Assembly: GCA_026391455.1 (NCBI GenBank)
Contig: JAPLEH010000010.1
Span: 124,001 to 188,000 of the forward strand
Source: Bacteroidota bacterium
GTDB taxonomy: Bacteria > Bacteroidota > Bacteroidia > Chitinophagales > Chitinophagaceae
Direction of reading: 5' to 3'
Length of the DNA stretch: 64,000 nucleotides
The stretch's first letter is position 1. Each line of letters begins with the position of its first letter. The notes below the pieces were generated by a model. That model saw nothing but the letters and a program-made list of their open reading frames with translations. It was not told the DNA's origin and searched no databases. Positions 45,526 through 59,669 of this stretch are shown here, one piece after another. A program made the position numbers and the translations under genes.

Positions 45526-47169
45526 ATGAAAATTAAAAGCCTGCGCTTGCAGAATTTTAAGCGATTTACTGATCTCACATTACAGGATATTCCTGAAAAT
45601 GTAAAACTCATTCTGCTTATTGGAAGCAATGGAAGCGGAAAGAGTTCTGTATTTGATGCATTTGAGGTGATAAATAAAAGGCTTAAAGATGATGATCGTT
45701 CTTTATCCTTCACTGAAAGTTTGGACTACTACGAAAAAGATGTGACCAAACCTTTCTACATTGAATTTTTAGCGGACAATTCCGAGCGAAAACAATACGT
45801 AGGCACTAACAATGGCTCCATTACAAATTCAGGAAATAGCTTTTATGGCAGAAGCGCAGTGCGCTACACCCCACGCATTGAACGTACAGTGATTGGAAAC
45901 CCCATTAATGTATCTGCTGACGGAGACAGACCACGCTATTATATCGACCGGGAAAATCGCTTTGAAAATGATATAGATTTGTTATTATCAGACATTGTAA
46001 AAAAAGTATTTAGCGATCTGAATAATAAAACTGAAGGGAAAATTGATGAAGTGAAAATGTTTATGCGTCGGCTGAATGATGCTTTATCCAGAATTTTCAG
46101 TTCGAGCTCGTACGAACCTATAAAATTAAGTAATTTTCAAACCCCTGCTGACGGCAAACCTGCACAATTACTGTTTAAGAAAGGAGGTTCAGAGTTTAAT
46201 TACGACCTTCTTAGTGCCGGGGAAAAAGAAATCATTAATCTTCTGATAAATCTATATACCAGAACTCCTTTTTTTAAGAATACGGTCTATTTTTTTGACG
46301 AGCTTGATGCGCATCTGAACACCTCTCTTCAGTACAACCTATTGAAGGAAATTACAGAAAACTGGATTCCTGAAAATTGTCAGATATGGACCGCTTCACA
46401 CTCGCTTGGTTTTATTCAGTATGCCTCAGATTCTGAAAATGGATGTATAATTGATTTTGATGACCTGGATTTTGACAAGCATCAGGTTTTAATACCAAAA
46501 CAAAAAAATGATTTCGAGATATTCGAAATTGCGGTATCAAAAGCATTTATTGACCATGTTGTGCAAGGCAGAAGAATCATATTTTCAGAAAATACCGATA
46601 CCCCTTTTTACAATGACCTGAACATTACAAATACACTATTTTTTGTAGCCACTGACAAAATGGATGTTTTTCACAAAGCCAAAAATCATAAACAATTTGG
46701 ACTTATTGACAGAGATTACCTTTCTGATAGTGAAGTTATTGAGATTAAAAAAGTGTATCAAAACCTGTATATTTTACCTTACTATTCATTTGAAAATCTT
46801 ATTTACCACCCCGACAATCTTGAAGAATATTATGCTTCATGCAGTAGGCCTTTCCATAAGCAGAACTATATAGATCAATTAACCAAAATCAAAAATGACG
46901 AAAGAGACTATTTAGCTGCAGGTATCATTCAGGCAAGAGGTGGATACCCATTTTATAAAGAGAACGAAAAAACAAAACAACTTAAACAGTTTAAAGAAAA
47001 CTACAGAGAAGTAATAGATCTGCTCCGAAGCGATGATTTTGAAACCTATTTCAAGGTCTTCCCTGCTAAAGACTATGGGAAAGAGATTCCTGAAAGGCTA
47101 GGTCTTTCATCTCAAAAGCTTTCGCAAACCAAATGGTTCAAACAACAAATCGAAAACATATTAAAATAA
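45526..47169 (+). CDS. AAA ATPase-TOPRIM fusion, merged PARIS-like or OLD-family defence protein
   Basis: 547 residues. The N-terminal ABC/AAA_15-type ATPase has Walker A GSNGSGKSS (33-41), an ABC-like signature LLSAGEKE (about 228-235), Walker B VYFFDELDAHL (about 253-263) and the H-loop TASHS. The C-terminal ~200 residues look like a DUF4435/TOPRIM nuclease: RRIIFSENTDTPFY (acidic Glu at about 355), the DxD in FGLIDRDYL (about 392-400), and LYILPYYSFENLIYHP. In PARIS defence, AriA (ATPase) and AriB (DUF4435 TOPRIM) are separate or fused; the fused form fits this order. OLD/Gabija A proteins share ATPase-TOPRIM order and are the alternative. Composition is AT-rich versus neighbours. fabG starts 4 bases after its stop. 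Confidence 0.7.
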   Translation: MKIKSLRLQNFKRFTDLTLQDIPENVKLILLIGSNGSGKSSVFDAFEVINKRLKDDDRSLSFTESLDYYEKDVTKPFYIEFLADNSERKQYVGTNNGSITNSGNSFYGRSAVRYTPRIERTVIGNPINVSADGDRPRYYIDRENRFENDIDLLLSDIVKKVFSDLNNKTEGKIDEVKMFMRRLNDALSRIFSSSSYEPIKLSNFQTPADGKPAQLLFKKGGSEFNYDLLSAGEKEIINLLINLYTRTPFFKNTVYFFDELDAHLNTSLQYNLLKEITENWIPENCQIWTASHSLGFIQYASDSENGCIIDFDDLDFDKHQVLIPKQKNDFEIFEIAVSKAFIDHVVQGRRIIFSENTDTPFYNDLNITNTLFFVATDKMDVFHKAKNHKQFGLIDRDYLSDSEVIEIKKVYQNLYILPYYSFENLIYHPDNLEEYYASCSRPFHKQNYIDQLTKIKNDERDYLAAGIIQARGGYPFYKENEKTKQLKQFKENYREVIDLLRSDDFETYFKVFPAKDYGKEIPERLGLSSQKLSQTKWFKQQIENILK

Positions 47170-47173
47170 ATCT

Positions 47174-47929
47174 ATGAAATTGCTCGAAGGAAAAACAGCG
47201 ATCATTACCGGTGCCGCTCGGGGTATTGGAGAAGGAGTGGCCCTCAAATTTGCCGAACAGGGTGCTAAAGTGGCTTTCACCTATGTAAGCGACAGCAGTG
47301 CAGAAAAAGCAGCCGCCTTGCAAGAAAAACTGATCGGCATGGGTGTACAGGCCAAAGCCTATAAAAGCAATGCCGGTGATTTTGCACAATGTGAAGCCCT
47401 GGTAACTGATGTACTGAAAGAATTTGGCACCGTGGATATTTGTGTAAACAATGCCGGTATCTCCAAAGACAACTTGCTGCTGCGCATGACGCCCGAGCAA
47501 TGGAATGAAGTGATACAGGTAAACCTGAATAGTGTATTTTATATGACCAAACAGGTGATCCGCCCCATGATGAAAGCCAAATCCGGCTCCATCATCAATA
47601 TGAGCTCCATCATTGGAGAAATCGGTAATGCCGGTCAGAGCAGTTATGCCGCCAGCAAAGCCGGTATCATTGGTTTTACCAAAAGTGTGGCCAAAGAACT
47701 GGGCAGCCGCAATATCCGTTGCAACGCTATTGCTCCTGGTTTTGTGGAAACAGATATGACCTCTTATCTCAAAGAAGGAGAAGCGGCTGATAAATACAAA
47801 GCCGGCATACCGCTGGGTAAGTTTGCCACACCGGAAGATATTGCCAATGCCACCCTGTTTCTTGCCTCAGACCTTTCCTCGTATATCACCGGTCAAACAC
47901 TGAGTGTTTGCGGCGGATTGAATATATAA
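47174..47929 (+). CDS. fabG: 3-oxoacyl-[ACP] reductase
   Basis: 251 residues, classical SDR. The cofactor motif is TGAARGIGEG (TGxxxGIG), then NAGISKDNLL, the catalytic Ser in INMSSIIGEIGNAGQ, YAASK with the Tyr-Lys pair, and CNAIAPGFVETDMT after it. The ending ITGQTLSVCGGLNI is typical of FabG. It reduces beta-ketoacyl-ACP in fatty acid elongation. It begins only 4 bases after the AAA-TOPRIM gene, which suggests that gene was inserted directly upstream rather than being part of an ancient operon. Confidence 0.93.
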   Translation: MKLLEGKTAIITGAARGIGEGVALKFAEQGAKVAFTYVSDSSAEKAAALQEKLIGMGVQAKAYKSNAGDFAQCEALVTDVLKEFGTVDICVNNAGISKDNLLLRMTPEQWNEVIQVNLNSVFYMTKQVIRPMMKAKSGSIINMSSIIGEIGNAGQSSYAASKAGIIGFTKSVAKELGSRNIRCNAIAPGFVETDMTSYLKEGEAADKYKAGIPLGKFATPEDIANATLFLASDLSSYITGQTLSVCGGLNI

Positions 47930-47983
47930 ACAAGCACGTTTTTTCAGAGCAATAAGCGTTCCGAAATACTCAACCTTTTTATC

Positions 47984-48505
47984 ATGAGTCGTATAGCCAT
48001 TGTAAAAGGAGATATCACAAAGATTAAGGTAGATGCGATCGTGAATGCAGCTAATACTTCTTTATTGGGTGGCGGTGGTGTGGATGGAGCCATACACCGT
48101 GCCGGAGGATCTGCTATACTCGAAGATTGCAGAAAGATAATTGCCCGTCAGGGCGGATGCAAAACTGGCGAAGCCGTGATCACCACAGCCGGAAAGTTGC
48201 CCGCCACCTATGTGATACATACCGTTGGGCCGGTTTGGAATGGCGGTAAAAATGGTGAAGAGGAAAACCTGTCCCGATGTTATATTAATTCACTGTTGCT
48301 TGCTGTGCAGCACCAGTGCCAAACGATCGCATTTCCCGGTATCAGTACAGGTATATACCGGTTCCCAAAAGAGAAAGCAGCCGCTATTTCCTATCATACC
48401 GTCAAAACGTTTTTGCAAACCAACCATCAGATTGATACTGTTACGTTCGTCTGTTTTGATGAAGAGTATTATGACTTTCTCATCAGGCTGACCGATGGCG
48501 GTTGA
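47984..48505 (+). CDS. Macrodomain ADP-ribose hydrolase (MacroD-type)
   Basis: 173 residues, a single macro domain. The catalytic and binding motifs are GDIT (9-12), [23 protein letters not shown] (residues 16-37, with Asn24 and Asp34 of the MacroD catalytic set) and the phosphate loop [11 protein letters not shown]. MacroD-type enzymes release O-acetyl-ADP-ribose or remove mono-ADP-ribose from aspartate and glutamate. It is 54 bases after fabG and 75 before a TIR-domain receptor gene. TIR domains produce NAD-derived ADPR molecules, so the two genes may touch the same metabolite pool; this is a suggestion, not shown by the sequence. Confidence 0.92.
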
Positions 48506-48580
48506 AATAACCTTTTTATGGTATGGTAAAGCCTGCTGAAAAATGTATCTTCCGGTTCACTTTTCAGAAAAAATGAACCA

Positions 48581-51205
48581 ATGGCAAAACGGTTGATCAA
48601 AGTTTTTATTTCCTATGCCCCTGCTGATGCAGCAGTGGTTGAGGTGTTTAAGAATGGTATTCACCAACACTTGCCATTGTCCACCCGTTTTAAATTTGAG
48701 ATCGGTGATCCTGCCGAACTATTAGGGGGCGATTCCGTGAAAACAGAAATAGCAAACCGGCTGGCCTCCTGTGATGTAGCGATATTATGTATATCTGCCA
48801 GCTTTTTAAATCTGGATAGCATAGCGATGAAAGAACTGGCTGCATTATTGAAGCAGGGAAATAAAAAAGTGGTGATCCCGGTTTACTTAAAGCAATGTTT
48901 TTTTCAGGCTTGGGAAACCGAATGCGGCATTGATGTTTATAAGCCATCCGGAGTAAATTATAATAAAGGATCAGATGAGAGTTTTGCGTTTTGCGACCTC
49001 GTTACGGTTACAGAAACAGAAGGCAGGCTCACTACGATAGCGGATAAATATATTGATCGTTATTTCATGGACCTTGCGCAGCAATTGGAGCTGGTATTAT
49101 CCGGGGGCAAAACGGAAATCATGGCAGCTAAAGCTATGGTGCCGGAAGCCAAAACGGAATATATCAACGAGATCAATTATCCTTATTTTGATGACACCAA
49201 TTTTTTTGGAAGAGAAATATTCCTGTCCCAAATCAACGATAAAATCAACTCGCTGAAATTACCCCTGCTGGTATCGGGAATCGGGGGTATGGGTAAAACA
49301 ACCACGGCTATTGCCTATGGCCAACTGCCCGCATATGCTGCGAACTTCCAGTATATCGGTTGGGTAAATGTAACCGGCGACCTGTTCAACAGCCTTTTCA
49401 GCACTTTTAAAGGGAATGCAATTTTGCCATTTGAATACGACCCGGGTGGCAATCAGGAAAAAGATCGGGCAGCTTTTATGCAATTGCTGAAAAATACCAG
49501 CGGCAATAACCTGCTTATAATCGATAATGTAAACAATGAAGCGGATATTGATGTCTTTATCAACAATTGGATGCAATACAAACCTGGCTGGAAATGCATC
49601 ATCACCACCCGCATCAACAATAAATCCTACCAGGATCATATGCTGTCGCTACAGAGCCTCACACCGGAGGAAGCAGAACAGCTTTTTCTCAAACACAACC
49701 CGTCGGATGATTTTGATCAAGACTACTTCCTTAACCTCTATCATTTTACCGGAGGCCATACGTTTGTGATCGAATTACTGGCCAAATATGCCGAATCAAG
49801 CAGTACCATCAAAAACACGAAGCAACTACTGGAGTATCTCTCGTCCAAAGGCATTAAAGCACTCACGCTGGCCGTAAAGGCCAAACAGGGACAACAACAG
49901 CAAGCCGATAGAAAAGTAAGCGACTTTCTCTATGGTTTATACGAACCGCTACGGTTGCCGGAAAAAGAGCAGGAGTACATCCGTTATTTCAGCGTGCTTC
50001 CGCCTTCTGAAATTGATTTTGAAAAACTGGTTTATCTGTGCGGTATTAAGGAGGAAGATATCGACACCTTTGATACCACCCTCCGTACCATGGCGAAGGC
50101 AGGCTGGCTTACCTGTACTAAAAAAGGTTTTTTCCTGCAGCAGATGATCGGGCAGATATGCAGGGAGAAATTAATGCCGGACGAGCATAACTGCATCACG
50201 CTGTTGAATGCACTATACACCCTTTGTGCAGCCAACAACTTGTCTGCGACTGTGCCATATTTTGATGTTGCGTATTTCATTTCTTTCTATATCAACTCAT
50301 CAACTGAAGCCTATGCCGATATGCAGAGGAACCTGGCCCTTCTTTCCAAATCCTATGGAAATATGACCTATGTGGTGCCATTGCTGGAATGTGCAGCAAA
50401 AATCTATGAAGGGAAAAATCAATATAAATATGCATTATGTCTCGAAAATACCGGGGATGCTTATATGGTGCAAAAAAATATTGCGGAAAAAAGAGAAGCC
50501 GCATTACAAGTTTATACCCGGTATAATGAAATAGCCATAACGCTTTGCAAAGAGGAGCCCGAAATAGCGGATTATCAGTATATACAATGCCTGTCAAATT
50601 TTAAACTGGGTGAAGTATATCAGAAGTCGGGAGACATTGAGCAAGCGGTGGTTCAATTCAACTTGTGTATTAAACGGGCAGAGCTTTTATGTGAATTTTT
50701 TCCTGATAATATTGATTACCGGCATATTGTTTCAGGAACATACAGCAAGATCGGGGAGGTGCTTTTAAAGGATAATAAACCCGAAGAAGCCGAAAAATTG
50801 TACACTATTTTTTTTGAGACACAAAAATTGCTTGCTGAAAAAAATCCGAACGATGTGAATAGTCAGAAATTTTTGAGTATCGCTTATCTTAAACTTGGGG
50901 AACTCTGGGAGAGCAGAAAAGACCTGCCGAAGGCTGCCGGTTTTTTTGACAAATACAGAGACATGAATGAAAAACTATTCGAAAAAAACAAAGAGGATAT
51001 ACAACATCAGTACTCCTTAGCAGTGGCATATTCAAGACTGGCTAATGTAATGGAAGGTGATAATAAAGTCCGGTTTTTGAAACAGGCGAAAGCATTCAGT
51101 GATGCCATTTTAGAAAAAATGCCTGAAAACACAGACTATTTGTCAACTGCCCGTTGGATATATAATGAGTTCGAAAAACTGGGTATTTCTACCCCTGCAA
51201 CTTAA
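48581..51205 (+). CDS. TIR-NB-ARC-TPR STAND protein (NLR-like)
   Basis: 874 residues, no signal peptide. N-terminal TIR domain (about 5-150): IKVFISYAPADAAVVEVFK, then CDVAILCISASFLNLDS and MKELAALL, whose Glu85 sits where TIR NADases have their catalytic glutamate. A STAND NTPase follows at about 205-430: P-loop GIGGMGKTTT (about 233-242), Walker B LLIIDN (about 311), CIITTR (about 339) and a GLPL-like GGHTFVIELL. The rest is helical; the region from about 600 carries tandem TPR-like repeats (FKLGEVYQKSGDIEQAVVQF and similar). The order effector-TIR, NB-ARC, TPR sensor is the NLR/bacterial STAND defence plan: sensing by repeats would drive oligomerisation and NAD cleavage by TIR. The 3' end overlaps a convergent gene by 17 bases. 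Confidence 0.82.
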   Translation: MAKRLIKVFISYAPADAAVVEVFKNGIHQHLPLSTRFKFEIGDPAELLGGDSVKTEIANRLASCDVAILCISASFLNLDSIAMKELAALLKQGNKKVVIPVYLKQCFFQAWETECGIDVYKPSGVNYNKGSDESFAFCDLVTVTETEGRLTTIADKYIDRYFMDLAQQLELVLSGGKTEIMAAKAMVPEAKTEYINEINYPYFDDTNFFGREIFLSQINDKINSLKLPLLVSGIGGMGKTTTAIAYGQLPAYAANFQYIGWVNVTGDLFNSLFSTFKGNAILPFEYDPGGNQEKDRAAFMQLLKNTSGNNLLIIDNVNNEADIDVFINNWMQYKPGWKCIITTRINNKSYQDHMLSLQSLTPEEAEQLFLKHNPSDDFDQDYFLNLYHFTGGHTFVIELLAKYAESSSTIKNTKQLLEYLSSKGIKALTLAVKAKQGQQQQADRKVSDFLYGLYEPLRLPEKEQEYIRYFSVLPPSEIDFEKLVYLCGIKEEDIDTFDTTLRTMAKAGWLTCTKKGFFLQQMIGQICREKLMPDEHNCITLLNALYTLCAANNLSATVPYFDVAYFISFYINSSTEAYADMQRNLALLSKSYGNMTYVVPLLECAAKIYEGKNQYKYALCLENTGDAYMVQKNIAEKREAALQVYTRYNEIAITLCKEEPEIADYQYIQCLSNFKLGEVYQKSGDIEQAVVQFNLCIKRAELLCEFFPDNIDYRHIVSGTYSKIGEVLLKDNKPEEAEKLYTIFFETQKLLAEKNPNDVNSQKFLSIAYLKLGELWESRKDLPKAAGFFDKYRDMNEKLFEKNKEDIQHQYSLAVAYSRLANVMEGDNKVRFLKQAKAFSDAILEKMPENTDYLSTARWIYNEFEKLGISTPAT

Positions 51206-51836
51206 TATTCCTCTTTTTTATATACGCATGCCATAAGATCATAGCGGCAATGGTGCGATAGGGTCGCCAGGGTTCAGCCAGTTCGAGTAATTTCTCTTTG
51301 GGTGTTTCTTTCGGCAATTGTTTTACTTCCTTTAAGCTATTCACCAGTGCAATATCACCCAATGGAAACAGGTCAGTTCGCTGTAAGGAATGCATGAGGT
51401 ACACATCAATGGTCCAATGCCCGATTCCTTTGAGTTGTATCATGATTTCCCTTACCCCTTCATCCTGCAAAGTAGCCAGTTTTGCCAACCGGAGTTTCCG
51501 GCTTTGTATGGCTTTGGCCAGTTCCCGCGCATAGCCCATTTTCTGTCGGGTAAAATAGCAGGCACGCATTTCTTCATCGGTCAGTGCCAGTATTTTGGCC
51601 GGCGTTACATACCCGATCTTTTCGCGGAGTTTGTTAAAAGCCGCATACGCTGCAGCCAGTGATACCTGCTGCTCGAGAATGAAAAGAATAACCGACTGAA
51701 AGGTAGCCGGCCGCACCCACATGGGCGGATATCCATGCTCGGCTATAATGGCGGCCAGGTGGGCATCACGGCCAGCCAGCTCACGGCAGAGTTTCCGGAA
51801 ATTGCTTTTATGAAACGTGAAAATCTTTTTTGGCAT
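51189..51836 (-). CDS. HhH-GPD DNA glycosylase (AlkA-like)
   Basis: 215 residues. The core begins with MWVRPATFQSVILFILEQQVSLAAA; the helix-hairpin-helix is MIQLKGIGHWTIDVYLMH; and the catalytic aspartate is in DLFPLGDIAL. The ending PYRTIAAMILWHAY is the family pattern. It should excise alkylated bases from DNA, like the glycosylase at 20850-21488, from which it differs clearly in sequence. Its last codons overlap the 3' end of the TIR-STAND gene by 17 bases on the other strand. Confidence 0.86.
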   Translation of the reverse strand: MPKKIFTFHKSNFRKLCRELAGRDAHLAAIIAEHGYPPMWVRPATFQSVILFILEQQVSLAAAYAAFNKLREKIGYVTPAKILALTDEEMRACYFTRQKMGYARELAKAIQSRKLRLAKLATLQDEGVREIMIQLKGIGHWTIDVYLMHSLQRTDLFPLGDIALVNSLKEVKQLPKETPKEKLLELAEPWRPYRTIAAMILWHAYIKKRNIKLQG

Positions 51837-51879
51837 CTGTTAATTGTATAATTTCAAGATAACTATTAACCACTCCCAC

Positions 51880-52419
51880 ATGAAAAAGTTGTTGCTCCTG
51901 CTGCTGATCGCCGTTGCCCAGCAGATCGCTGCCCAAAATACCGATAATACCATTCAGGCCAATGGAATTGGTCCTTATAAACTGGGTATGAAAAAAGCAG
52001 CCATTGAAAAAATATGGGGTAAAAAGATCCAGCTCAAAAATCTGCTCACTGAAGAAGGTTGGCAGGATACCATTACTGTTAAATATAAAAATACCGACTT
52101 GCAGCTCTATCTGCAAAAAAGCTATGCAGACTCGGCACAATTCGACATCGTGCTCGATGGTATTAAAGTATTCAGCCCCTTGTTTAAAACCAAAGCCGGG
52201 GTGGGTGTGGGTGATGATAAATTAAAAGTCATCAATGCCTACGAATTTAATTCCGTGAGTATCTGGCCCGAATTCGAGGACGATGAATTTACCCGCCGGA
52301 GTAAAACCAGGGCAATCATGTATGTCTATTTCGACAAAGAGGGCAGTTCCTTTGTTTTTCACCTGTTGAATAAAAAAGTAACGGCTATTGAAATTGGTTA
52401 TGCCGAAGAAGGCGACTGA
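51880..52419 (+). CDS. Small secreted protein
   Basis: 179 residues from the ATG at 51880; the frame opens at a TTG twelve codons earlier. Signal peptide MKKLLLLLLIAVAQQIAA|Q. The mature part starts ANGIGPYKLGMKKAAIEKIWG, similar to short Bacteroidota exported proteins with a SmpA/BamE-like opening, and continues with strands VKYKNTDLQLYLQK, FDIVLDGIKVFSP and AIMYVYFDKEGSSFVFHL. A BamE-like fold is a guess. Convergent with the enoyl-CoA hydratase gene, 6 bases apart. Confidence 0.65.
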   Translation: MKKLLLLLLIAVAQQIAAQNTDNTIQANGIGPYKLGMKKAAIEKIWGKKIQLKNLLTEEGWQDTITVKYKNTDLQLYLQKSYADSAQFDIVLDGIKVFSPLFKTKAGVGVGDDKLKVINAYEFNSVSIWPEFEDDEFTRRSKTRAIMYVYFDKEGSSFVFHLLNKKVTAIEIGYAEEGD

Positions 52420-52425
52420 TGCTTT

Positions 52426-53187
52426 TTATTTTTTTGATTTGAATTTTTCAATGGCCTGGCGGGTAAAATCGCTGAGTACGAGCCTGCCGCTAATAGTTGC
52501 CCTTTCACTGAGCAGAACATCCCAATGCTCAGTGCCTTTCCAGAATATTTTTTTCATTTCCGCCATTGCTTCCGGACTGGAATGAGACAAGCGGTCTGCG
52601 AGATGCCTTACCGCTTCATCCACCTGTTCGAGGGTGGGATGTACTTCTGCAAATAATCCCTTACGCTTGGCCCATTCTGCACTGCGCCAACTGGCAGCAT
52701 CAATGGCCAGTTGAGAAAAGGCGGCAGATCCGATTTTCCTTTCTACTGCAGGGCCTACCACAAAGGGGCCAATGCCCACAGCCAGTTCACTCAGTTTTAC
52801 TTCTGCCGATTCAATGGCAATGGCATAGTCGGCTGCAGCAGCCACACCCACGCCGCCACCCACACATTTACCCTGAATGCGGGCAATTACAAATTTCGGG
52901 CAGGTACGCACCGCATTGATCACGTGTGCAAAGCCACTGAAAAAATCAAGCCCCTGTTCTTTTGTTTGTATGGCGACGAGTTCATCAAAACTGGCACCGG
53001 CACAAAATGCTTTCTCTCCGGCGCTGCGAAGTATGATCACGTTGCTTGCCGTATCATTACCAGCACCATGAATAGCCTGCGCCAGTTCATTTAATAGTTT
53101 GCCCGGGAGGGAATTACTTTGAGGATGATAGAATTCAATCGTGGTGATACCGTGGTGAAATGCTGATCGTACATATGCGCCTTCCAT
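52426..53187 (-). CDS. Enoyl-CoA hydratase/isomerase family protein
   Basis: 253 residues, crotonase fold. The oxyanion regions are KAFCAGASFDEL and IQGKCVGGGVGVAAAADYAIA. The catalytic position has SELAVGIGPFVVGP, where canonical hydratases have the second Glu; here no Glu is obvious, so this resembles methylglutaconyl-CoA hydratase- or PaaF-like members more than FadB. The N-terminus IEFYHPQSNSLPGKLLNELA is typical of the superfamily. It could serve amino-acid or phenylacetate catabolism with paaG (51 kb away) but is not adjacent to those genes. Confidence 0.85.
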   Translation of the reverse strand: MEGAYVRSAFHHGITTIEFYHPQSNSLPGKLLNELAQAIHGAGNDTASNVIILRSAGEKAFCAGASFDELVAIQTKEQGLDFFSGFAHVINAVRTCPKFVIARIQGKCVGGGVGVAAAADYAIAIESAEVKLSELAVGIGPFVVGPAVERKIGSAAFSQLAIDAASWRSAEWAKRKGLFAEVHPTLEQVDEAVRHLADRLSHSSPEAMAEMKKIFWKGTEHWDVLLSERATISGRLVLSDFTRQAIEKFKSKK

Positions 53188-56897: not shown

Positions 56898-59669
56898 TTA
56901 CTGCCGGATCATTTTTTCCGAAGCAACTAACTTTCCGTTTACATAGAGGGAGCAGGTATATACACCCGCAGTCAATTTTTGTGTATTTACTTTCAAGATA
57001 CCTGTACCATCACCCTGCAGTGTTTCTGAAGAGATCGGTTGACCGTTTACGGTACTGAATACAATCTTTCCCTGTTGGGAGCCGGCTGGCATTTGATACC
57101 GGATATTCACTTCGCCGGAAAAGGGGTTGGGCGATATGGTGAGCCATTGTATATTTTCTGAGTTACTGAGTTCTGTGTATGTAATTGGAGTTTTGGTTTC
57201 CGTCAGCAACAACAGTTTACGCAGTTCGTCGATCTGCGCCTGTTGTTTTTCGATCATGGCCTGTTGCTCCTGTACGGCTTTTACCAGGGGCACTACAAAC
57301 TGCCCGTAGGCAAGGCTGTAATTATCTTTTACAGAGGAGGGTTTATGTACACCGTTGAAATCATAGCCGGTTTCTTTTGCTGCAGCTTCCACTTCCTGTG
57401 CAATGAAGCCGCTCTGGCGTATGGAAGTGGAGGGACCGAAATCCATCTGCATCATCTCCTTTTGAATACTGTCTGGCAGGTCTGTATTGAGAAACTCCTG
57501 GAATTTACGTGTATCGAAGTTATAAACAACAGGTCTCAGTTTTTTGATGAACGCAAGTCCCTTTACATCCTTTTCAGTTATATTAGTTTTAAATCGTCCA
57601 TCAGAAACGGTATAGATCACGGTGCCTTCTATTGTTCGAACGGTGGTATTGCCCAATCGGATTTTATCATTGTCATTAGAAGATGCGTTATAGCCGATAG
57701 CAGTAGCATTGGAAAAGGAAGTTCCGCAATAGGTATACGCCCCCAGTCCGGTATTTCGGTTACCGGTAAGATTTCCCAATAATGATCGTTGCCCAATCGC
57801 CGTATTGCCGGAGCCGGATGTATTTTGACGCTGGGAACCGATACCTATTGCAGTATTGTATATACCATCTATATTATCACCCAATGCAGCCGCGCCAATG
57901 GCAGTATTATAACTTCCGGATACATTACTGATCAGTGCCCTTTCCCCAAAGGCGGTATTTTGGGAGCCCGAGATATTATTGGTTAACGCATTCCATCCGG
58001 CAGCCGTATTACGGAAGCCATCAATATTACTATTCAGGGTTTTATATCCGAGGGCCACATTATTTTCGCCGGTCGTATTGCTCTCCATTGCTTTGCTGCC
58101 TACCGCTGTATTCTCCGCACCAGCAAAATTCTGGGTAAGCGCCCGAAATCCCACCGCGGTATTATTGCTCAAATTGGACCCTGATACGAGGGTGGCAAAG
58201 CCAATCGCTGTATTGTTTTCTCCGGTGCTATTCATCAGCAGCGATGATACCCCTACAGCGGTATTACGGTTGCCGGTAGTATTAAAGTACATAGAAGCCA
58301 GCCCGATGGCTGTATTATCAAAACCGGTAGTGTTGGTAGTAAGCGCCCGCATACCGTTGGCGGTATTTCCATTACCCATATTAAACTCACCGCATTTAAA
58401 ACCAAAAAATGTATTGCCATTCAGATGGTCAATCCGGCCTGATCTGGCATTATTAACCCGAATATTGAAAGGTACATTATCGGTGGTACCAATGAAGTGT
58501 ACATTATCGGCGGTGCCGGCATTACCTGTAAGTTTCCATTCATTTATGGGTGCTGCCGGAAGGGGTTGCCAGGTAGCTATTCCACTGGCATCCGATGTGA
58601 GTACTTTTCCCAAACCGGGTACACCACCCGTTACCTGCAACTGGCCAGTAATAAAAATGGCAGTATTGCCCACTCCATTATACACTTTACTTACGCTTGC
58701 GTTCCCTAATTGGATGGCATCACTTTCATATACCAGGGCACCATTTCCGATAGCGGTGGTGTTATTCAAACCGTCTGTTGCCACACCCGCATTCATTCCT
58801 ATTGCAGTATTATTGCTTCCGGAAATATTTTGATACAGAGCCTGCCACCCGATTCCGGTATTGCCCGATCCGGTAGTATTATTAAAAATAGCAGAGACTC
58901 CAAAGCCGGTGTTTTGACCGCCCGTACTATTTTTATGTATAGCAGCATATCCACTTCCAGTATTCCCGCTGCCGGTAGTAGTGAAGTGTAAGGCCCAGGA
59001 ACCGTTGGCCGTATTCTCATTACCCGTAGTGTTGTTGTACAATGCCTTGTAGCCGGTACCCGTAGTGTACGACTGCAGGTTATTGTATAAAGCTTCAAAA
59101 CCAACGGCCGTACTTCTGTTGCCAGATACATTGGCAAACAAAGCCTGGTAACCATTGGCTGTATTCTCATCGCCGCTAACATTGGAATACATGGCCTGAA
59201 AACCATTGGCCATATTATAACTCCCGTTGTTCTGCATCATCGCTTTGTAGCCGGTGGCAGTGTTGCGTTCTCCGCCTGCGTTTGTATACAAAGATCCGTA
59301 TCCGAGTGCGGTATTGAAATTGCCCTGATTCTGATACAGCGTTTGCAGACCTACTGCCACGTTATAGCCCCCGCCGATATTGCTGTACATACTCTGGTAT
59401 CCGATAGCAACGTTTTGCGGGCCAATGGTATTATTGCGGAGCGCTTCAAATCCTATTCCGATATTAAACTGACCTCCATCCGATGCAAGGGCATTTTTCC
59501 CGATCGCCACACTGTTCACCCCGTTTACGGGTACACTGTTCTGGTCATACGATACAGACTGGGCGGATACAGATCTCCCTGCCAATAACGATAAAAGAGT
59601 TATGATAAAGAATAAAAAGTTCAGCCGGTATTGGCGTTTACTAACGGTATGGAATATGCGCAGTTTCAT
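56898..59669 (-). CDS. Fibre-like surface protein: YadA-head repeats, S74 chaperone domain, T9SS tail
   Basis: 923 residues, signal peptide ending near residue 36 (GRSVSA|Q). Two blocks of ~23-residue repeats of the type GxxNTAxGxxALxxNxTG (about 45-300 and 435-670) look like the trimeric left-handed beta-roll of YadA/Hia heads. They are separated by KVLTSDASGIATWQPLP, a segment common in tail-fibre-like proteins. The peptidase S74 intramolecular chaperone starts at SDGRFK (689-694, the Ser-Lys pair), with KGLAFIKKLRPVVYNF, and ends in a coiled coil (VKAVQEQQAMIEKQQAQIDELRKLL). The last ~90 residues (LTISPNPFSG ... TAGVYTCSLYVNGK) are a T9SS type A tail. S74 domains normally autocleave at their N-terminus after trimer folding, which conflicts with a C-terminal sorting signal. 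Confidence 0.88.
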   Translation of the reverse strand: MKLRIFHTVSKRQYRLNFLFFIITLLSLLAGRSVSAQSVSYDQNSVPVNGVNSVAIGKNALASDGGQFNIGIGFEALRNNTIGPQNVAIGYQSMYSNIGGGYNVAVGLQTLYQNQGNFNTALGYGSLYTNAGGERNTATGYKAMMQNNGSYNMANGFQAMYSNVSGDENTANGYQALFANVSGNRSTAVGFEALYNNLQSYTTGTGYKALYNNTTGNENTANGSWALHFTTTGSGNTGSGYAAIHKNSTGGQNTGFGVSAIFNNTTGSGNTGIGWQALYQNISGSNNTAIGMNAGVATDGLNNTTAIGNGALVYESDAIQLGNASVSKVYNGVGNTAIFITGQLQVTGGVPGLGKVLTSDASGIATWQPLPAAPINEWKLTGNAGTADNVHFIGTTDNVPFNIRVNNARSGRIDHLNGNTFFGFKCGEFNMGNGNTANGMRALTTNTTGFDNTAIGLASMYFNTTGNRNTAVGVSSLLMNSTGENNTAIGFATLVSGSNLSNNTAVGFRALTQNFAGAENTAVGSKAMESNTTGENNVALGYKTLNSNIDGFRNTAAGWNALTNNISGSQNTAFGERALISNVSGSYNTAIGAAALGDNIDGIYNTAIGIGSQRQNTSGSGNTAIGQRSLLGNLTGNRNTGLGAYTYCGTSFSNATAIGYNASSNDNDKIRLGNTTVRTIEGTVIYTVSDGRFKTNITEKDVKGLAFIKKLRPVVYNFDTRKFQEFLNTDLPDSIQKEMMQMDFGPSTSIRQSGFIAQEVEAAAKETGYDFNGVHKPSSVKDNYSLAYGQFVVPLVKAVQEQQAMIEKQQAQIDELRKLLLLTETKTPITYTELSNSENIQWLTISPNPFSGEVNIRYQMPAGSQQGKIVFSTVNGQPISSETLQGDGTGILKVNTQKLTAGVYTCSLYVNGKLVASEKMIRQ

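What the first reader, a model, noticed from the sequence alone, without database searches (positions are those of the whole stretch)
48581..51205. NLR-like bacterial receptor: TIR, NB-ARC-type STAND NTPase and TPR repeats in one protein
The sequence shows a TIR domain with a glutamate (Glu85) at the usual catalytic place, a complete P-loop/Walker B/ITTR STAND NTPase and C-terminal tandem TPR-like repeats. This is the plan of plant TNL receptors and of bacterial STAND defence proteins, where repeat-domain binding of a phage product triggers oligomerisation and NAD depletion by TIR. The TPR region is the part most likely to be specific, and its trigger is unknown.
Basis: partly seen in the sequence, partly recalled or inferred. 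Interest (0 to 1): 0.8.

Follow-up and report, generated by a model that had tools for sequence, protein, structure and literature searches.

The report
Bacterial TIR-NB-ARC-TPR immune-type receptor
This gene encodes a bacterial cousin of plant immune receptors, with a likely killer domain, a molecular switch and a sensor made of repeats; it is probably an anti-virus alarm protein of a kind already known from bacteria.

Summary
ORF 48581-51205 (+, 874 aa) carries TIR_2 (residues 8-106), NB-ARC (229-426) and C-terminal TPRs, with four 48-residue units from residue 663. The AlphaFold2 model's best PDB match is the STAND/TPR protein PH0952; plant resistosomes follow. Two refinements. (1) Ungapped, Glu85 lies one residue beyond the Glu of other TIR-NB-ARC proteins, but it is the conserved Glu of its own TIR group: 24 of 26 other sequences in a gapped alignment. 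(2) The gene sits alone between convergent genes that are directly adjacent in 18 of 30 genus loci. The neighbouring macro gene occurs without it. Relatives of the NB-ARC-TPR core carry other effectors: a modular STAND receptor. TIR-NB-ARC-TPR proteins recur in 12 other genomes among 296 sampled in the phylum, and the architecture is in print. An NB-ARC tree suggests this TIR fusion arose separately. Best reading: a STAND anti-phage receptor whose TIR consumes NAD+ once its TPRs meet an unknown trigger. Activity and trigger are inferred. Ordinary in kind; no full-length orthologue turned up in the collections searched.

The parts
48581..51205 (+). 874-aa TIR-NB-ARC-TPR protein (P0001)
48602..48898 (+). 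TIR_2 domain, residues 8-106
   Evidence: 2e-10, over cut-off; secondary-structure order of the model; profile A3, of which the window is one of 5 rows, matches solved TIR domains
48833..48835 (+). Glu85, the presumed catalytic Glu, in the model's helix 80-92
49265..49858 (+). NB-ARC domain, residues 229-426
49277..49300 (+). P-loop GIGGMGKT, residues 233-240
49511..49528 (+). Walker B LLIIDN, residues 311-316
49604..49612 (+). TTR (RNBS-B / sensor 1) motif, residues 342-344
50240..50554 (+). helices before the clear TPRs (residues about 554-658)
   Evidence: model helices
50567..51142 (+). TPR array, four 48-residue units starting at residues 663, 711, 759 and 807
47984..48505 (+). macro-domain protein directly upstream; neighbour, not judged part of the system
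51189..51836 (-). HhH-GPD DNA glycosylase-type gene, convergent flank of the insertion slot
47174..47929 (+). FabG-type reductase gene, the other flank of the slot in 18 of 30 genus loci

Best explanation
It is a single-gene STAND (NLR-like) defence receptor. At rest the NB-ARC is held inactive, with the C-terminal TPR superhelix as sensor. Binding of an invader-derived or invader-induced protein to the TPRs allows nucleotide exchange and oligomerisation. This brings the N-terminal TIR domains together, and their Glu85 active site cleaves NAD+, killing or arresting the infected cell. Shown here: the three domains, the intact nucleotide-binding motifs, the 48-residue repeat array, the conserved Glu of this TIR group, the variety of effectors on related cores, and the sporadic single-gene occurrence. 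Inferred from the STAND and TIR families: ligand binding, oligomerisation, NADase activity, abortive outcome, and phage as the trigger.
For: TIR_2 and NB-ARC over Pfam cut-offs. K239, D315, T342 the same in 19 of 19. Model of mean pLDDT 77.7; best PDB match 6mfv, a STAND protein with a TPR sensor (Foldseek E 6e-15), then among others NRC2, CED-4, NRC3, NRC4 and Sr35, with Roq1 at rank 44. The TIR+NB-ARC profile A4 (window plus 4 relatives) matches Roq1 collinearly at 2.9e-21. Relatives of the core carry CHAT, EAD11, NNH5, Schlafen AlbA_2, metallophosphatase and kinase domains by Pfam, and DUF4062-like and nuclease-like N-termini read by eye. Patchy distribution: besides the window, core matches in 2 of 294 family genomes (E<=1e-20) and 1 of 42 genus genomes (E<=1e-10). 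It lies in a slot that is empty in 18 of 30 genus loci. Glu in 24 of 26 other TIRs of its group.
Against: Model confidence for the TIR part is modest (ten-residue blocks 57-75; TIR alone mean 55, with 0 PDB matches at E<=0.001). TM-scores of the full model are low over its length (0.36 for 6mfv at rmsd 11.4, 0.17-0.30 for the NRC and Sr35 rows), so the match is of domains, not of the whole arrangement; many other top rows are plain TPR proteins such as LGN. Ungapped, Lys84 takes the Glu column of the other TIR-NB-ARC proteins. At the MHD-like position of the winged helix the window has Gln520, where 5 of 10 sequences of A1 have His and 4 Ser. No PADLOC family fits. Without a full-length orthologue, selection on the whole protein could not be tested.
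Confidence: 0.75

Rival explanations
1. The TIR is a signal synthase or scaffold rather than an NAD+-depleting effector: on activation it makes an ADP-ribose-derived signal (cADPR isomer, His-ADPR) that fires a separate effector, for example the genome's own Thoeris ThsA.
For: The genome has a Thoeris-type pair elsewhere: ThsA 625 bits and ThsB 176 bits, at G000:C74. The weak TIR-alone model has ThsB as first hit (E 7e-3). ThsA effectors are activated by TIR products (PMC11204291, passages).
Against: None of the neighbouring genes scanned is ThsA-like. Nothing here links the two loci.
Confidence: 0.12
2. The macro-domain gene 75 bp upstream and the TIR receptor form a two-gene system, the macro protein reading or erasing an ADP-ribose product of the TIR.
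For: Same strand and adjacent; the macro domain is a 162-bit Pfam match; the macro gene is itself sporadic, in 3 of 42 genus genomes, the window's included.
Against: In G324 the same macro gene stands in the same slot without a TIR gene, and in G322 it stands elsewhere, without one in the 9 kb fetched. tblastn over all 190 loci held found macro only at those three places (many loci had only about 1.5 kb flanks).
Confidence: 0.08
3. A STAND protein with a regulatory or developmental role (AfsR- or PH0952-like switch) and no role in defence.
For: AfsR and PH0952 are among the solved relatives of the NB-ARC.
Against: An N-terminal TIR; patchy single-gene occurrence; relatives carry CHAT, nuclease-like and adaptor domains.
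Confidence: 0.07

Closest known systems
Bacterial TIR-NB-TPR proteins and plant TNPs (TIR-NBARC-TPR), as described in PMC9806590 (passages seen)
   Same: Same three-domain order; P-loop and TTR motifs; of 18 other proteins aligned here 18 match TIR_2 and NB-ARC and 17 TPR_12, the one without (L094) ending at a contig edge
   Different: 18-22% identity. NB-ARC lies outside the group that holds the other TIR-bearing bacterial and archaeal proteins; TIR of another group with one extra residue before the Glu; no DUF7779 match, which 16 of 19 have; 48-residue TPR units. Plant TNPs themselves were not compared
PH0952, STAND protein with TPR sensor (PDB 6mfv)
   Same: Best structural match, STAND NTPase plus TPR sensor
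   Different: 16% identity, TM-score 0.36 over the model; the profile match begins at residue 10-13 of the chain with the NB-ARC, so no TIR precedes it
Roq1 and other plant TNL resistosomes (PDB 7jlv)
   Same: Collinear TIR-NB-ARC profile match, 2.9e-21
   Different: LRR sensor in place of TPR (recalled); plant protein
Avs (antiviral STAND) systems: Avs4 with TPRs (PMC10586772, passage), Avs5 with SIR2 NADase effector (PMC12931631, passages)
   Same: Effector-STAND-sensor plan; NAD+-consuming effector in Avs5
   Different: TIR instead of nuclease or SIR2; no Avs model among the PADLOC matches
Thoeris ThsB
   Same: TIR domain; weak profile similarity, 19 bits
   Different: No ThsA among the neighbours scanned; TIR fused to a STAND receptor
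Swarozyc (DUF4062 TIR-like NADase; PMC13174449, passages)
   Same: Two relatives of the window's core (L021, L022) begin with a DUF4062-like domain (by eye and recall; L022 has a weak NPHP3-domain hit, E 0.006)
   Different: Window has a TIR_2 domain

Membership tests
TIR domain (PF13676) | Profile match over the curated cut-off | tested here: met
   41.6 bits against 28
TIR domain (PF13676) | Glu at the active-site position of helix alpha-C | tested here: met
   Glu85 in the helix 80-92 of the model; Glu in 24 of 26 others of its TIR group in a gapped alignment, 19 of 24 by fixed spacing. One residue off in the ungapped alignment with 18 other TIR-NB-ARC proteins. Pocket geometry was not inspected
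TIR domain (PF13676) | NAD+ cleavage | not testable with these tools
   needs an assay
NB-ARC STAND NTPase | P-loop, Walker B and TTR motif | tested here: met
NB-ARC STAND NTPase | MHD-like His in the winged helix | tested here: inconclusive
   Gln520 in the window; His in 5, Ser in 4 of the 10 sequences of A1
TIR-NB-ARC-TPR (TNP-like) architecture | TIR, NB-ARC and TPR in one polypeptide in that order | tested here: met
TIR-NB-ARC-TPR (TNP-like) architecture | Shared descent of the NB-ARC with other TIR-bearing members | tested here: not met
   The 18 other TIR-bearing sequences of the tree (L094 was dropped as short) fall, with 13 others, on the far side of a branch of support 99 from the window protein, whose own branch is long (1.74). 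Same plan, apparently assembled separately; plant TNPs were not in the tree
Known anti-phage system (PADLOC 2.0.0) | Strong match to a system model | tested here: not met
   Best ThsB 19 bits, E 1.6e-4
Thoeris | ThsA effector next to the TIR | tested here: not met
   Neighbours scanned are ADA, GH3, GSDH-like, AAA_15, FabG, macro, HhH-GPD, ECH and a LytTR regulator

The most novel reading that the evidence does not exclude
A separately assembled TIR-NLR: a TIR group with a one-residue-longer loop before the catalytic Glu was joined to a Bacteroidota NB-ARC-TPR core that elsewhere carries CHAT, nuclease-like and adaptor effectors. Its TIR could make a distinct ADP-ribose product that also feeds the genome's Thoeris ThsA, so that one receptor would drive a second system.
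Probability: 0.1. Interest if true: 0.65.

Novelty: new member of a known kind. Interest (0 to 1): 0.3.

Why it matters
It adds a diverged example to the bacterial TIR-NB-ARC-TPR receptors and suggests that this NLR plan was put together more than once by swapping effectors on an NB-ARC-TPR core. A core that occurs with many effectors would allow a direct test of which part sets the trigger.

Tried and rejected
Macro-TIR pairing was considered and rejected as the leading idea: the syntenic locus of G324 has the macro gene but no TIR gene, and macro was found at none of the other loci held apart from those of G324 and G322.

A close-homologue search gave nothing: genome contigs and viral contigs with the single protein. 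Plasmids gave 5 records and phages 1, none covering 80% of the query. The single-protein PDB search found none at E<=0.1.

A search for papers behind PDB 9m0n/9umd (a TIR-bearing TPR protein) found 0, and one for 9h2l/9h4i/9h73 gave one unrelated paper; 9h2l is listed as a wheat resistosome. No tRNA and no Rfam family in the window. The repeat scan of 47900-52000 gave only short imperfect repeats; promoter- and terminator-like sites were at the level of shuffled sequence. The TIR-alone prediction was weak and its fold search gave 0 matches at E<=0.001.

Rows dropped before counts. Tree: L082 and L094 as too short; L139 was not in the set because no P-loop frame was found. Glu count: 42 loci were given, 39 had a hit, one best TIR per locus was kept and identical stretches were merged, which left 27 rows besides the window; L177 is the window itself and is left out of 24 of 26. 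L005, L007 and L189 had no hit; the second TIR of L174 and the own TIR of L004/L190 were not counted, because a better TIR of the same locus stood for them. By eye L004 and L007 do not have Glu at that spacing. Slot survey: classified by my reading, for the 30 loci held out of 36 places in 34 genomes. In the tree, 'nonTIR' labels, and the TIR label of L087, were for the most part set by my reading of N-termini, not by a scan.

Full report
What is there. Pfam finds TIR_2 at residues 8-106, NB-ARC at 229-426 and TPR matches between 673 and 825. NCBIfam gives only a partial match (46.9 bits against a cut-off of 300) to the FxSxx-COOH system TPR protein over 206-375, which is the shared NTPase part. 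Autocorrelation of residues 651-850 shows a 48-residue period (25% self-identity; other lags from 30 to 59 give 4-10%), with units starting at 663, 711, 759 and 807. An AlphaFold2 model from 22 sequences has mean pLDDT 77.7 and pTM 0.64. By ten-residue blocks the TIR part (1-100) is 57-75, the NB-ARC (211-420) 52-92, and the TPR array (651-860) 78-97; 105-158 is below 50. Foldseek gives 6mfv, a STAND protein with a TPR sensor, as best match at 6e-15 (TM-score 0.36 over the model), followed by a mixture of NB-ARC proteins (NRC2, CED-4, NRC3, NRC4, Sr35; Roq1 at rank 44) and plain TPR proteins such as LGN. A TIR+NB-ARC profile from the window and four bacterial and archaeal relatives matches Roq1 collinearly at 2.9e-21.

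The Glu. In the alignment with 18 other TIR-NB-ARC proteins, which has no gap in that loop, 18 of 18 have Glu opposite Lys84. The window TIR resembles another TIR group more. Of the 13 other family genomes that match the window TIR, 10 are also among those that match an own-genome paralogue, and BLASTP aligns Glu85 with the Glu of that paralogue. Across 26 other sequences of this group 24 have Glu, one Asp and one Lys at this column of a gapped alignment; by fixed spacing from the SxxF motif Glu is at the same place in 19 of 24, and two have it one residue earlier. So Glu85 is the conserved Glu of a TIR group that mostly has one extra residue in the preceding loop. Whether that group is catalytic was not tested.

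Relatives. No full-length orthologue was found. Besides the window, core matches at E<=1e-20 are in 2 of 294 sampled family genomes and 3 of 395 sampled class genomes, and at E<=1e-10 in 1 of 42 genus genomes, at 25-31% identity; the own genome has one more NB-ARC paralogue, of 32%. An alignment-based scan of genome contigs brought 41 loci and of viral contigs 11. I gave 12 of these 52 to Pfam: TIR in 4 of 4 that looked like TIR; of the other 8, CHAT in 2 and Schlafen AlbA_2, metallophosphatase, kinase, NNH5 and EAD11 in 1 each, while L067 showed no DUF4062 call among the 25 families listed, though it looks so by eye. A phylum search with the TIR+NB-ARC profile found matches in 19 of 296 genomes, the own one included; 13 places besides the window match nearly the whole model, and one more (L137) has a TIR, together in 12 other genomes. 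Of 19 aligned proteins, window included, 19 have TIR_2 and NB-ARC and 18 TPR_12. In an NB-ARC tree of 78 sequences the 18 other TIR-bearing proteins lie, with 13 others, on the far side of a branch of ultrafast-bootstrap support 99 from the window protein, which sits on a long branch near cores bearing other effectors. This points to a separate TIR fusion; the long branch is a caution.

Setting. In the same-genus genome G324 the gene order ADA-GH3-GSDH-like-AAA_15-FabG-macro / HhH-GPD-ECH is the same, but macro and HhH-GPD overlap tail to tail with no TIR gene. In 30 HhH-GPD loci of the genus, FabG and HhH-GPD are directly convergent in 18; a GxxExxY-type gene (named by eye) lies between in 2, the macro gene in 1, macro plus the receptor in 1 (the window), and a 71-aa ORF in 1; 3 have other genes and 4 cannot be judged because the stretch ends. 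The receptor is therefore most simply a single-gene acquisition. Its G+C is 0.417, and 0.381 in the TPR part, against 0.47-0.49 for FabG, macro, HhH-GPD and ECH, 0.449 for the window and 0.351 for the AAA_15 gene, which is weak support. HhH-GPD matches 34 of 42 genus genomes at E<=1e-20, one of them (G316) only distantly, and macro 3 of 42.

Literature seen. [quoted passage not shown] PMC10907252 (passages) and PMC12931631 (passages) describe the STAND defence plan and a STAND NADase. So the kind is known. The window protein is a diverged new member, with mechanism inferred from its family.

Noticed in passing
window 45526-47169 (+): AAA_15/OLD-like ATPase of low G+C (0.351); best PADLOC matches AriAB (67.1 bits) and PtuA (67.6 bits), so a possible PARIS- or Septu-like defence ATPase. 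A counterpart stands at the same place in the same-genus genome G324 (L019).
   Followed up: partly
L005 (G000:C74, around 2678-2968): A Thoeris-type pair in the same genome: ThsA 625 bits and ThsB 176 bits against PADLOC.
   Followed up: partly
L027 (G000:C8:31000-43000): An NB-ARC protein (514 aa) next to a caspase-like protein (PADLOC caspase, 60 bits) in the same genome.
   Followed up: no
L004 and L006 (G000:C37, about 51165-52776): Adjacent genes: a protein with a trypsin-like protease part, a TIR protein, a second protein with a TIR match and a SIR2-like look, and a STAND-like NTPase; looks like a conflict-system operon (by eye, 98).
   Followed up: no
between FabG and HhH-GPD in genus genomes (L034, L036, L037, L041): The convergent FabG/HhH-GPD slot holds different small genes (GxxExxY-type protein, macro protein, a 71-aa ORF), so it may be a small insertion hot spot.
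   Followed up: partly
window 56898-59669 (-): Protein of 923 aa with many short NTA-type repeats resembling YadA-head repeats and a C-terminal tail with chaperone- or sorting-like looks (by eye).
   Followed up: no
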